From: Candidatus Woesearchaeota archaeon | GTDB taxonomy: Archaea; Nanobdellota; Nanobdellia; SCGC-AAA011-G17; ARS1403 | Assembly (NCBI GenBank): GCA_016188065.1 | Contig: JACPIN010000002.1 | Coordinates: 1 to 64,000, forward strand | DNA: 64,000 nt | Reading direction: 5' to 3' | Part shown: piece by piece, positions 6,533 to 13,933 of the stretch | Position numbering within the stretch: position 1 is the first letter of the stretch | Layout of the letters: the number at the start of each line of letters is the position of its first letter | Translations under genes and position numbers: made by a program | The notes under the pieces: generated by a model | Seen by the model: the letters and a program-made list of their open reading frames with translations, nothing else | Database searches by the model: none | Told to the model about the DNA's origin: nothing

Positions 6533-6682
6533 ATGTTAAAAACTTTTACAATCACAAAGAGGATAGCGAAACACGGAAAACAGTCCGTTATAGTTATACC
6601 CAGTTTCTTGCAGTCTGAATTGAAGCCAAAAACCATTGTGGAAATAAAGATTAATGTTATTAAGGAGAGCGAAGATGTTTAA
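6533..6682 (+). CDS. Small SpoVT/AbrB-like protein (49 aa), overlaps the AAA+ gene
   Basis: MLKTFTITKRIAKHGKQSVIVIPSFLQSELKPKTIVEIKINVIKESEDV; not in ORF track but open. Confidence 0.5.
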   Translation: MLKTFTITKRIAKHGKQSVIVIPSFLQSELKPKTIVEIKINVIKESEDV

Positions 6683-7883
6683 AGCAAAAACTTACAAAAA
6701 CAGCGCAGAATTAGCTAATCTGTCAGGCGTTCCTATTTACATGTCTGACATGGTAGATGCTTCTTTAAGGGGGAGATTAAATACTTTCTTGCAGGGAAAT
6801 ACCGGTAGTGGTAAAACCCAGTTAGTCAGGGATGTTATGCAATATTTCGGAGACAAATCCCTATTCATCCTTGGAAGAAACGATATGGATACAAGAGAAT
6901 TATTCCAGCAGGTAAATCCAGAGTTTTTAAAAGCTTTAAAAGAACAAAGGGACATTTCTGGCATGAGGTTCAAGGAGTTAACAGACAAAGTAAACTATCA
7001 TTTCATAGCAGTAGATGAACTGCCAAACTGTGTTCCTGCAGTAAGGGCGCAATTATTTAATCTATTCGATGGCTTTATAGAAATCGACGGAAAAGCTTAC
7101 CCTATTGGCTCAGGATATTCTGTAGGAATGGCAACAGGTAATATTGGCCAGCAATTCACAGAGTCTTCAAACGAATTAGGAAGGGCATTGAAAGACAGGA
7201 TGCATTTAATTATTGACACAGATTACTACAGGCCGCAGCCAATAGATACTTTAGACATGCTAGAGGCTGACAGAAATCCAAGAGTTAACTTTGGTGAAAA
7301 ACATGAAGATAAAACAAAAGAAATCATAGAATCTCATAAAAATTTAAGGAAAAGAGAAATTTCAGATGAAAAATATATTCTTGCTAATTATTTAATTCAT
7401 GGATTGGATTACCTGCCAGATGAATTCGGCGGAAGCAAGACAGCTTTAAAATCTGGCTGGCCAAATAAATTAGAAGGGCATGCATTGGGCTCTGATGAGG
7501 CCTTAATACTGCCTGTCTCACCAAGAGCAGCTAAATCAATAATAACACTAAGCCAGGCTTTAGATTCTATAGTAGAGGAAAAGGGAGCAGAGCCTGATCA
7601 TTTCAATTCAATGATGACTGCATTCAAGTTTGCTTCAGCATATTCGGGGATATTGAATCAGGCTATAGTAATGCAAAATTATGATGAAAATCCTTACAAA
7701 GCAATGGATGCCGTTATAGAGACAACTAAGACTCAATTTAAACAGCAAGAAGATAAAATAATTGCCGGATTAGACATGGCAGGAAGAGGAAAGAAAAGTG
7801 AAAGATTATTAAATGAATTCCAAGGAAGATGGGGATTCATGAGAAATATTTTGGAAAGCTTAGCTGACAGGCAAAAGAGGTAA
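6675..7883 (+). CDS. MoxR-like AAA+ ATPase
   Basis: LQGNTGSGKTQLVRD Walker A, HFIAVDELPN Walker B; likely ATG at 6675 rather than 6654. Confidence 0.8.
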   Translation: MFKAKTYKNSAELANLSGVPIYMSDMVDASLRGRLNTFLQGNTGSGKTQLVRDVMQYFGDKSLFILGRNDMDTRELFQQVNPEFLKALKEQRDISGMRFKELTDKVNYHFIAVDELPNCVPAVRAQLFNLFDGFIEIDGKAYPIGSGYSVGMATGNIGQQFTESSNELGRALKDRMHLIIDTDYYRPQPIDTLDMLEADRNPRVNFGEKHEDKTKEIIESHKNLRKREISDEKYILANYLIHGLDYLPDEFGGSKTALKSGWPNKLEGHALGSDEALILPVSPRAAKSIITLSQALDSIVEEKGAEPDHFNSMMTAFKFASAYSGILNQAIVMQNYDENPYKAMDAVIETTKTQFKQQEDKIIAGLDMAGRGKKSERLLNEFQGRWGFMRNILESLADRQKR

Positions 7884-7890
7884 AATTAAA

Positions 7891-8700
7891 ATGAAATTCA
7901 ACACTTATTTCGGAAAGCCAATTAAGGGTGCATATGAAGATTACATAGAGAGAGCTAAAAATACAAGAGAGGAAAATAACAGAGAAGCCATTGGAACTAC
8001 TGGAATAAATTCAACTCTCGAGAATCCAAGAGATTATATCCAAATCCCGGGAATTAATGGGATTCATAGAAACCCTATAGCCATATCAAAATTTGAAGTT
8101 CAAGGAATGAATGGAAAAAATTATGAAGACACCCACAGAGCTGTTTTCCAATTAGAAAAAGGGCTTTACATTCCAACCCCCGCAATATTCATGCAGCATT
8201 TCAAGAACATTATAGATACTTATCAAAATAATCAAACGATTTTTGACGCATCAGGAAACCCAATAAGTAAAGAAGAGCATGAAGAAATTTACAGACATTT
8301 GACAACTGACTTTAAGGATATATATGGAAATAATCAACCAGGTGCGTGGACATGGCTTAATGCAGGATTTGTTCAAGGAACCGGCTTTAATAATTTGGAC
8401 TTGGAAACAATAATTGGTATTAATGCAGATGGAACTTTTAAAACAAGAAAAGAGCCTTTATTGCCTTGTTTAAATAAAGATGCTTATGCTGAAATAATGT
8501 TTAATGCTCAAGGGATAGCAACAACAAAAACTAGAAAGCAGGAATATAAACGCGGTGAGAATATTTATTTTTATAACCCTGTAAAGGGTGCTGTCGCGGG
8601 GTTCAGGTCGAATTCCGGCAGGGCTGACCTGGGTTGCGGCAGGAATCCTGCCGGCTCGAATTCCTCGCTCGGGGTACGCGCCGCGCGCGATAAGGTATAG
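7891..8700 (+). CDS. DGR target protein 1 (C-terminal variable, CLec/FGE-like predicted)
   Basis: MKFNTYFGKP... start, WTWLNAGF, C-terminus AVAGFRSNSGRADLGCGRNPAGSNSSLGVRAA matches the template repeat. Confidence 0.85.
   Translation: MKFNTYFGKPIKGAYEDYIERAKNTREENNREAIGTTGINSTLENPRDYIQIPGINGIHRNPIAISKFEVQGMNGKNYEDTHRAVFQLEKGLYIPTPAIFMQHFKNIIDTYQNNQTIFDASGNPISKEEHEEIYRHLTTDFKDIYGNNQPGAWTWLNAGFVQGTGFNNLDLETIIGINADGTFKTRKEPLLPCLNKDAYAEIMFNAQGIATTKTRKQEYKRGENIYFYNPVKGAVAGFRSNSGRADLGCGRNPAGSNSSLGVRAARDKV
8590..8676 (+). repeat. DGR variable repeat VR1
   Basis: Aligns to TR 12695-12799 with all substitutions at TR adenines across the main stretch. Confidence 0.88.
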
Positions 8701-8702
8701 AA

Positions 8703-12552: not shown

Positions 12553-12579
12553 AGATTTTTCTTAATCCAAGAAAAATCT
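12553..12579 (+). other. Perfect 11-bp hairpin upstream of the TR
   Basis: AGATTTTTCTT-aatcc-AAGAAAAATCT. Confidence 0.6.
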
Positions 12580-12694
12580 ATGAAGGATAGTAACTTGGGC
12601 TACATGCAAGTTCATTACGGCATGGACGGTTTAAGTCTATATGTCATGAAATTCAATAGCGATAGTTAGGTGATAATTTGATGAATTTGCTACA

Positions 12695-12799
12695 GCTGTC
12701 GCGAGGTTCAGGTCGAATTCCGACAGGGCTAACCTGAATTGCAACAGGAATCCTGACAACTCGAAATCTAGCAGAGACGAGATTTCCTCGCTCGGAATA
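12695..12799 (+). repeat. DGR template repeat (TR)
   Basis: Adenine/AAY-rich counterpart of VR1/VR3, 24 nt upstream of the RT start; ends CTCGGAATA vs VR CTCGGGGTA. Confidence 0.92.
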
Positions 12800-12823
12800 A
12801 CCCAAGTCCCAGGACGTTTCGTA

Positions 12824-13933
12824 ATGAAAAATTACAGGAAGATATATCTAAAATTATGCTCTATAGAGAATCTAAACTCGGCTTTCAAGAAAGCAAGAGA
12901 AGATAAAGCAAGTTTGCCTTATGTGATTAAGTTTGAGAAAAATTTAGTAGAAGAGTTAAAGAAACTTCAGAAAGAATTGTCTTCAAAGACATACAAGTCA
13001 TTTCCATTAAAAAGATTCATAATAAGGGATCCAAAGACAAGGACAATTCACGCATCTGCTTTCAGAGACAGGGTTGTTTATCATGCTTTAGTCAATATTT
13101 TAGAGCCGATTTTTGATCCAATCTTTATTCATGATTCATACGCATCTAGAAAGGGAAAAGGAACTTTGAAAGCGGTCCAGAGATTTGATCATTTCAAGAG
13201 AAAAATAAGCAAGAATGGAAGATTAGCAAAAAATGCCTACAATAAAAGCAGTGTTGTTGGTTATGTTTTAAAAGCAGATATTAAGCATTACTTTGATACA
13301 GTAGATCACGAAAGATTATTGAGAATAGTTGAAAGTAAAATAAAAGATGAAAATGTAATGTGGCTAATAAAGCAGGTTTTAGTCAATTTTGATTCTCCCA
13401 TTAAAGGAAAAGGAATGCCCTTAGGAAATTTAACTTCTCAATTCTTTGCGAATGTTTATTTGAATGAACTAGACCAGTTTGTAAAGCACAAATTAAAAGC
13501 AAAATATTACATAAGATACGTGGATGATTTTGTAATATTACATAATGATAAAGGAAAATTATTAGAATATAAAGATAAAATCGGCAAATATTTAATGTAT
13601 TTAAAATTAGGATTGCACCCAACCAAGTCAAATATCATTCCTTTAAGAAACGGAATTGCTTTTTTAGGTTACAGGATATTTTATCATCACAAACTATTAA
13701 GAAAAAGCAATATAGATAAGTTTGAAAGGGATTTCAATCAAAAGCTTGAGATTTACGAAGGGGGGGGGGGGCGATACTCGTATGAAAATTTGCTTGCAAG
13801 CATTGAAGGATGGTTCGGCTATGCTATGTGGGCAAATACTTACAAATTAAGAAGAGAAATTATAAAACAAATTAGAGCTTTAGAGAATAAATGCTCAAAT
13901 AAAACACTACATCTCCCTAAAATCAGGGAATAA
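12824..13933 (+). CDS. DGR-type reverse transcriptase
   Basis: GMPLGNLTSQFFANVYLNELDQF and YIRYVDDFVIL; adjacent TR and VRs. Confidence 0.95.
   Translation: MKNYRKIYLKLCSIENLNSAFKKAREDKASLPYVIKFEKNLVEELKKLQKELSSKTYKSFPLKRFIIRDPKTRTIHASAFRDRVVYHALVNILEPIFDPIFIHDSYASRKGKGTLKAVQRFDHFKRKISKNGRLAKNAYNKSSVVGYVLKADIKHYFDTVDHERLLRIVESKIKDENVMWLIKQVLVNFDSPIKGKGMPLGNLTSQFFANVYLNELDQFVKHKLKAKYYIRYVDDFVILHNDKGKLLEYKDKIGKYLMYLKLGLHPTKSNIIPLRNGIAFLGYRIFYHHKLLRKSNIDKFERDFNQKLEIYEGGGGRYSYENLLASIEGWFGYAMWANTYKLRREIIKQIRALENKCSNKTLHLPKIRE

What the first reader, a model, noticed from the sequence alone, without database searches (positions are those of the whole stretch)
6533..13933. Diversity-generating retroelement with three target genes in an archaeal genome
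Seen directly: an RT with GNLTSQ and YVDD, a template repeat 24 nt upstream of it, and three genes ending in the matching variable repeat. VR1 and VR3 differ from TR only at template adenines over the GTC..TCG stretch (10 of 18 and 14 of 18 adenines changed, no others). This is the adenine-specific signature of DGRs. DGRs are known in some archaea including DPANN, so the class is described, but this arrangement of three targets is worth documenting.
Basis: partly seen in the sequence, partly recalled or inferred. Interest (0 to 1): 0.9.

Follow-up and report, generated by a model that had tools for sequence, protein, structure and literature searches.

The report
Archaeal mutation machine: spliced template, switchable enzyme
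This is a real archaeal gene-diversifying system (a DGR), but its template seems to carry a tiny intron that must be cut out before copying, its enzyme gene carries a run of 12 Gs that looks like an on/off switch, and one of its three targets is rewritten by a second system elsewhere in the genome.

Summary
The DGR is real: the RT's best solved match by sequence and fold is the BPP-1 DGR RT, and VR1 and VR3 differ from the template only at adenines. "Three targets of one template" is wrong. VR2 differs from TR1 at 13 non-adenines but matches a second template (TR2, beside a second RT on contig C6) at all 48; TR2 also templates a fourth target on C15.

(1) TR1 and TR2 hold an 18-nt insert that no VR has. 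In 17 archaeal TRs this insert fits a bulge-helix-bulge intron (4-bp helix, two 3-nt bulges, cut two nt into each); where VRs are known they place the junction exactly there, and changed adenines lie on both sides. The template RNA is probably spliced before copying; the genome encodes EndA and RtcB. (2) The RT holds a 12-G run, the only G/C run of 9 or more in 881 kb. In 230 related RTs long repeats are about 27-fold enriched over flanks, recur at a few loops, include (GA)n and (CT)n, and put 13 of 31 carriers out of frame exactly at the repeat: probable phase variation. Splicing and switching are inferred, not observed.

The parts
6654..7883 (+). AAA ATPase, MoxR/dynein-related type
   Evidence: AAA_5 over Pfam cut-off, E 2e-8
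7891..8700 (+). Target gene 1, ends in VR1
   Evidence: ORF; shares its N-terminus with targets 2 and 3
8593..8672 (+). VR1, templated by TR1
   Evidence: 10/18 adenines changed, 0/48 other bases
8703..10403 (+). VWA-like protein (motif DNSGS) with an HELAH motif; no library match
   Evidence: motifs in the translation; none in Pfam, NCBIfam or PDB sequences; orthologues on the same contigs as related DGR RTs
10400..11161 (+). Target gene 2, ends in VR2
   Evidence: ORF
11045..11124 (+). VR2, templated by TR2 on contig C6, not by the window's TR
   Evidence: TR2: 9/18 adenines, 0/48 others; TR1: 13 non-adenine differences
11163..11915 (+). Target gene 3, ends in VR3; predicted fold with weak C-type lectin resemblance
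   Evidence: model pLDDT 88; most leading PDB matches are C-type lectins but best E 0.07
11811..11890 (+). VR3, templated by TR1
   Evidence: 14/18 adenines changed, 0/48 other bases
11953..12473 (+). Small ORF plus PemK/MazF-like toxin, probably a toxin-antitoxin pair inside the cassette
   Evidence: PF02452 E 2.9e-10 for 12141-12473; antitoxin role of the 67-aa ORF inferred
12566..12698 (+). RT-16 RNA (RF03019), probable leader of the template RNA
   Evidence: cmscan 50.7 bits, cut-off 50; found in 19 of 20 related sources tested, counting this one
12698..12765 (+). TR1, part 5' of the insert
12766..12783 (+). 18-nt insert in TR1, proposed BHB intron
   Evidence: absent from all VRs; BHB geometry in 17 TRs
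12784..12799 (+). TR1, part 3' of the insert, with IMH*-like end GGAATA (VRs have GGGGTA)
   Evidence: same kind of difference reported in PMC4372165
12824..13933 (+). DGR reverse transcriptase
   Evidence: PF00078; best PDB match 8UB7
13760..13771 (+). 12-G tract in the RT gene, in frame here; proposed slippage switch
   Evidence: only G/C run of 9 or more in the genome; enrichment in related RTs

Best explanation
A DGR system of a DPANN (Woesearchaeota-like) archaeon with two RT/TR cassettes and four targets beside AAA/VWA-like genes. Shown: TR1 templates VR1 and VR3; TR2 on C6 templates VR2 and, on C15, VR4; apart from one base in VR4 only template adenines differ. Inferred, most likely: the TR transcript folds a bulge-helix-bulge, EndA cuts out 18 nt, RtcB joins the ends, and the RT copies the spliced RNA with random bases at adenines, so the cDNA matches the intron-free VR. 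The intron would also break TR/VR identity in the DNA and may protect the TR from being overwritten (speculative). Inferred: slippage at the 12-G tract reversibly switches the RT in and out of frame, so only part of a population hypermutates. The targets are probably variable binding proteins of a MoxR/VWA-type recognition or conflict system (inferred from neighbours). Confidence by part: DGR 0.97; TR2 serving VR2 0.95; spliced template 0.75; phase-variable RT 0.75; conflict-system role 0.4.
For: Adenine-only TR/VR differences and exact TR2-VR2 match. DGR RT by sequence and fold. Insert shared by diverged TRs but in no VR, with VRs tracking their own TR on both flanks; BHB geometry in 15 TRs of a 257-region scan against 28/3220 shuffles, two more found with relaxed rules; all 7 counted pairs formed in 13 of 13 sequences, with covariation; changed adenines 3' of the insert in L084, L212, L233 and L239; insert-free sister TRs; EndA and RtcB in the genome. 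Long repeats: 26 in 230 kb of RT genes against 4 in 949 kb of flanks, p 4e-15; (GA)n and (CT)n at the same loop; 16 in frame, 13 out of frame at the tract; downstream part still conserved; L164, 70% identical, has 11 Gs at the window's site and is out of frame.
Against: No RNA data, reads or experiments. In the window's own TR1 the BHB is not the best local fold (mean pair probability 0.10), and no outer exon helix was seen. Much of the BHB conservation is shared ancestry; covariation rests on few changes. No length variation of the tract was seen between near-identical sequences (L038 and L125 both have 9 Gs). Homopolymers can be mis-assembled. Two BHB-like hits of the scan (L304, L055) look like chance.
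Confidence: 0.62

Rival explanations
1. The insert is not spliced: the RT jumps over a hairpin in the template, so the cDNA lacks it.
For: The insert always contains a hairpin; short deletions between repeats occur in other TR/VR pairs (L008, L022).
Against: The 5' strand of the stem (CTCG) is kept and only the 3' strand is lost; the junction is exact without evident microhomology; the 4-bp helix and 3-nt bulges are kept in all 17.
Confidence: 0.15
2. The insert marks where cDNA synthesis starts or stops, and the sequence 3' of it is only a recognition site that is never copied.
For: In the window's TR1 the 12 nt after the insert have no adenines, so copying there cannot be seen.
Against: In L084, L212, L233 and L239 adenines 3' of the insert are changed in the VR and other bases are not.
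Confidence: 0.08
3. The G tract is a harmless glycine loop, and the out-of-frame RTs are decaying genes or assembly errors.
For: No within-population length variation was found; some RTs are broken elsewhere.
Against: 27-fold enrichment over flanks, several repeat types at the same loop, breaks at the tract itself, and conserved sequence beyond it.
Confidence: 0.15
4. The tract drives transcriptional or ribosomal slippage that makes two RT forms, not a DNA switch.
For: Homopolymers can slip during transcription or translation (general knowledge).
Against: (GA)9, (GA)13 and (CT)11 at the same loop are not usual slippery sites; about half of the carriers are in frame.
Confidence: 0.06

Closest known systems
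Nanoarchaeal (DUSEL4) DGRs, Paul et al. 2015, PMC4372165
   Same: Several DGRs in one DPANN genome, targets without a local RT, IMH TGGGGT against IMH* TGGAAT, DGR-type RT
   Different: No template intron or RT repeat tract is mentioned in the text searched; here one operon mixes targets of two templates
Bordetella phage BPP-1 DGR (RNP structures 8UB7-8UBF)
   Same: RT sequence and fold, adenine-specific TR to VR transfer
   Different: No Avd protein recognised here; RT starts 24 nt after the TR; TR carries an insert
Thiohalocapsa PB-PSB1 DGRs, PMC10907252
   Same: A target diversified in trans, inferred from a perfect match at all non-adenine sites
   Different: Bacterium; no template intron or switch tract named in the passages read
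Archaeal BHB introns of tRNA, rRNA and mRNA, PMC7714728
   Same: 4-nt helix flanked by two 3-nt bulges; EndA present in the genome
   Different: Host RNA is a DGR template; splicing not shown; no outer helix seen
Repeat-tract phase variation as in Campylobacter (polyG/C tracts, PMC4965091)
   Same: Poly-G tract inside an ORF, in-frame and out-of-frame versions among relatives
   Different: The gene is a hypermutation enzyme and the host an archaeon; switching not observed
MoxR-vWA conflict systems with DGRs, PMC7159879
   Same: AAA ATPase and VWA-like protein next to DGR-diversified proteins
   Different: DPANN archaeon; VWA only by motif; separate target genes instead of VWA-FGS fusions

Membership tests
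Diversity-generating retroelement | RT of the DGR type | tested here: met
   Best PDB match by sequence (E 6.6e-45) and by fold is the BPP-1 DGR RT; group II RTs score lower. No full RT-superfamily tree was built.
Diversity-generating retroelement | TR and VR that differ at template adenines only | tested here: met
   VR1, VR3 with TR1 and VR2 with TR2: 0/48 non-adenine changes; VR4 has one
Diversity-generating retroelement | Different 3' ends of TR and VR (IMH* and IMH) | tested here: met
   GGAATA in both TRs, GGGGTA in the VRs
Diversity-generating retroelement | C-type lectin fold in the variable domain (common, not universal) | tested here: inconclusive
   Good model, but best PDB E-value 0.07; leading hits mostly C-type lectins
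Diversity-generating retroelement | Accessory protein such as Avd (common, not universal) | tested here: not met
   The small ORFs between target 3 and TR give no Avd match; one is PemK-like
Diversity-generating retroelement | Ongoing diversification in the population | not testable with these tools
   No reads available
Archaeal BHB intron | 4-bp helix between two 3-nt bulges, cut two nt into each | tested here: met
   17 TRs fit; 13 have a VR that fixes the junction. In TR1 this is not the best local fold.
Archaeal BHB intron | Structure kept through compensatory changes | tested here: met
   91/91 cells paired; two pairs with changes on both sides; all slid controls far lower. Few independent changes.
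Archaeal BHB intron | Splicing endonuclease and ligase in the host | tested here: met
   PF01974 E 1.2e-30; RtcB E 1.1e-130
Archaeal BHB intron | Intron removed from the RNA | not testable with these tools
   No RNA data
Repeat-tract phase variation | Long simple repeat inside the ORF, beyond chance | tested here: met
Repeat-tract phase variation | In-frame and out-of-frame versions, broken only at the tract | tested here: met
   16 open, 13 broken at the tract among 31 carriers in different species; not within one population
Repeat-tract phase variation | Reversible length change within a clone | not testable with these tools
   Needs reads or culture
MoxR-vWA system | MoxR-type AAA together with a VWA protein | tested here: inconclusive
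   AAA_5 over cut-off; VWA only by a MIDAS-like motif

The most novel reading that the evidence does not exclude
In a group of DPANN DGRs the template RNA is interrupted by a BHB intron and must pass through the tRNA-splicing machinery before mutagenic reverse transcription, which also makes the template DNA a poor target for its own cDNA; and the RT gene is a phase-variable contingency locus, so these archaea switch a hypermutation machine on and off.
Probability: 0.55. Interest if true: 0.92.

Novelty: new variant of a known kind. Interest (0 to 1): 0.8.

Why it matters
How DGRs keep the template unchanged while rewriting targets, and how cells limit hypermutation, are open questions. A spliced template would be a new RNA-processing step in a retroelement and a new kind of substrate for the archaeal splicing endonuclease; no paper in the searched library holds both terms, though that library is open-access only. 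A slippage-controlled RT would put one local mutation system under the control of another. Both can be tested with groundwater metagenomes and metatranscriptomes and with recombinant EndA.

Tried and rejected
One DGR with three targets: rejected, VR2 belongs to TR2. VR2 as an old decayed copy of TR1: rejected, its 13 non-adenine differences are TR2's letters. Insert as a recent TR insertion not yet passed to VRs: rejected, because diverged TRs share it while their VRs track each TR on both flanks. Deletions in CAACAAC-rich TRs (L008, L022, L204) were set aside as a different thing. Inserts of L024 and L249 do not fit BHB; L289 fits 3 of 4 central pairs and is not counted among the 17. L167's apparent change 3' of the insert is an alignment shift and is not used as evidence. 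RTs less than 48% identical (bacterial, viral and others) as a comparison: 4 repeats in 101 RTs against 8 in their flanks, p 0.06; a viral-contig scan with a Thiothrix RT found nothing. Searches for near-identical RTs with other tract lengths gave none. Papers on RT-16 RNA and Paul et al. 2017 are not held. The wide TR/VR scan gave many spurious gapped alignments in A-rich DNA and its output was cut; only pairs with clean flanks were used.

Full report
What is there. The window is part of contig C9 of an 881-kb, 26-contig genome. Its RT is closest to RTs of Woesearchaeota and other DPANN MAGs. In order: an AAA ATPase (6654-7883), target 1, a VWA-like protein (8703-10403), target 2, target 3, a probable toxin-antitoxin pair with a PemK toxin, an RNA matching Rfam RT-16 that ends where the TR begins (the same RNA is found in nearly all related loci tested), the TR, and the RT. 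The RT's nearest solved relative is the BPP-1 DGR RT by sequence (E 6.6e-45) and by fold.

Templates and targets. A scan of the whole genome that ignores template adenines finds six places: two TRs and four VRs. TR1 (window) fits VR1 and VR3 with no non-adenine change over 66 nt. TR2, upstream of a second RT on C6, fits VR2 with none and VR4 on C15 with one. TR1 and TR2 differ at 13 non-adenines over that stretch, and each VR carries the letters of its own TR. So target 2, lying between two TR1 targets, is served from elsewhere. VR4's target also follows an AAA gene. Several DGRs per genome and remote targets are published (PMC4372165; trans activity in a bacterium, PMC10907252), so this part is a new member, not a new kind.

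The insert in the template. TR1 reads CTCGAA-ATCTAGCAGAGACGAGAT-TTCCTCGCTCGGAATA; VR1 and VR3 join CTCGAA or CTCGGA directly to TTCCTCGCTCGG. TR2 has an 18-nt insert at the same place. Among 248 related loci examined, 157 gave TR/VR candidates, and a group of them shows an insert of 17-39 nt at this position. Written as a bulge-helix-bulge, the exon end CTCG pairs with CGAG near the insert's 3' end (4 bp); AAA and A[T/C/A]N are the two 3-nt bulges; the junction given by the VRs falls two nt into each bulge; a hairpin of variable sequence fills the middle. A four-nt helix flanked by two 3-nt bulges is the published definition (PMC7714728). A scan asking for the AAA bulge and a GAATA-type end found it in 15 TRs (both of this genome's, and 13 others) plus two hits that look like chance; shuffles gave 28 in 3220. 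L165 (2-bp inner helix) and L176 were added with relaxed rules, making 17. In 13 of the 17 a VR fixes the junction; L165, L166, L176 and L258 rest on the motif alone. The central helix is kept through changes (TTCG/CGAA in L084; CTCG/CGGG in L178, L212, L239), and the inner stems vary. Sister TRs L170, L171, L234 and L235 have no insert, so it is gained or lost as a unit; on an RT tree 16 labelled loci (L289 included, L165 and L176 not) need at least 9 changes.

Why splicing rather than skipping. In L084, L212, L233 and L239, template adenines 3' of the insert are changed in the VR while other bases there are not (L164 has one non-adenine change there). The mutagenic copy therefore spans both sides and lacks only the insert. 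A polymerase jump across the stem would be expected to lose CTCG too, or to use microhomology; neither is seen. The genome encodes EndA and RtcB, and ARAGORN predicts introns in 11 of 21 tRNAs (not checked one by one). The main weakness is TR1 itself: its best local fold is a different 7-bp hairpin, and no outer exon helix was seen.

The tract in the RT. The RT holds 12 consecutive Gs, four GGG codons, in a genome where 19% of glycine codons in long ORFs are GGG. It is the only G/C run of 9 or more in the genome. RT2 has a shorter run (GGTGGGGGGG) at the same place. Of 230 non-redundant related RTs, 26 carry a long repeat in 230 kb, against 4 repeats in 949 kb of flanks. The repeats fall mainly at four places: about nt 390-410, 535-590 (just before GMPLGNLTSQ), 708-746 (after YVDD) and 913-940 (the window; a loop between two C-terminal helices of the model). 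Three are (GA)n or (CT)n; (GA)n tracts also occur in two CPR bacterial RTs (L052, L077). Of 31 carriers checked (26 less L003, plus L052, L077, L128, L148, L150 and L161; two of these have 8 Gs), 16 are open across the tract, 13 go out of frame exactly at it, and L101 and L220 are broken elsewhere. In 12 broken ones examined, the part beyond the tract is still conserved and, with one exception, free of stops. L164, 70% identical to the window's RT, has 11 Gs at the window's site and is out of frame. Carriers are scattered over the tree (at least 27 changes for 31 carriers), as expected if such tracts come and go.

Limits. All of this is from assemblies. No reads were available, so neither splicing, switching nor current VR diversification was observed. 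No near-identical genomes with different tract lengths were found. The genomes were picked because their RT match was partial; later calls (34, 35, 40-42) took most other matches listed, but the share out of frame should not be read as a rate. The 26 genomes were partly picked the same way, so that count is descriptive. The role of the targets is guessed from their neighbours (compare PMC7159879); the C-type lectin fold is only weakly supported.

Literature. No paper in the library holds both 'diversity-generating retroelement' and 'bulge-helix-bulge'. Searches joining DGR with phase-variation or repeat-tract terms listed no paper, among those shown, that describes a repeat tract in a DGR RT (two papers holding both subjects were checked). 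The library is open-access only, so earlier reports cannot be excluded.

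Noticed in passing
G000:C6:6725-7930 (-) and G000:C15:205-2359 (-): Second RT/TR cassette of the same genome, and a fourth target (VR4) that directly follows another AAA ATPase gene.
   Followed up: partly
12566-12698: Rfam RT-16 RNA lies just upstream of the TR here and in nearly all related DGRs tested, so this RNA family may be the leader of the DGR template RNA.
   Followed up: partly
L024 (TR upstream of RT at 2377), L249, L289: TRs with larger hairpin-containing inserts (33-62 nt) missing from their VRs that do not fit, or only partly fit, the BHB geometry.
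   Followed up: partly
L052 and L077: (GA)11 and (GA)17 tracts, in frame, in DGR-like RTs of CPR bacteria; the switch idea may extend beyond archaea.
   Followed up: no
G169, G060, G112, G351 and other genomes: Further G runs of 9 or more outside RT genes in DPANN genomes (some at contig ends); other possible switch genes.
   Followed up: no
G000:C1:53601-56354: RtcB match split in two within one 975-codon open frame, which suggests an intein.
   Followed up: no
14004-15286 and 16449-17751: Two copies of a two-gene unit (nucleotidyltransferase-like plus HEPN-like by eye), 70% identical in DNA, each preceded by a TCCCTAAAATCAGGGA palindrome pair.
   Followed up: no
11953-12473: A PemK-type toxin with a small upstream ORF sits between the last target and the template RNA.
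   Followed up: no
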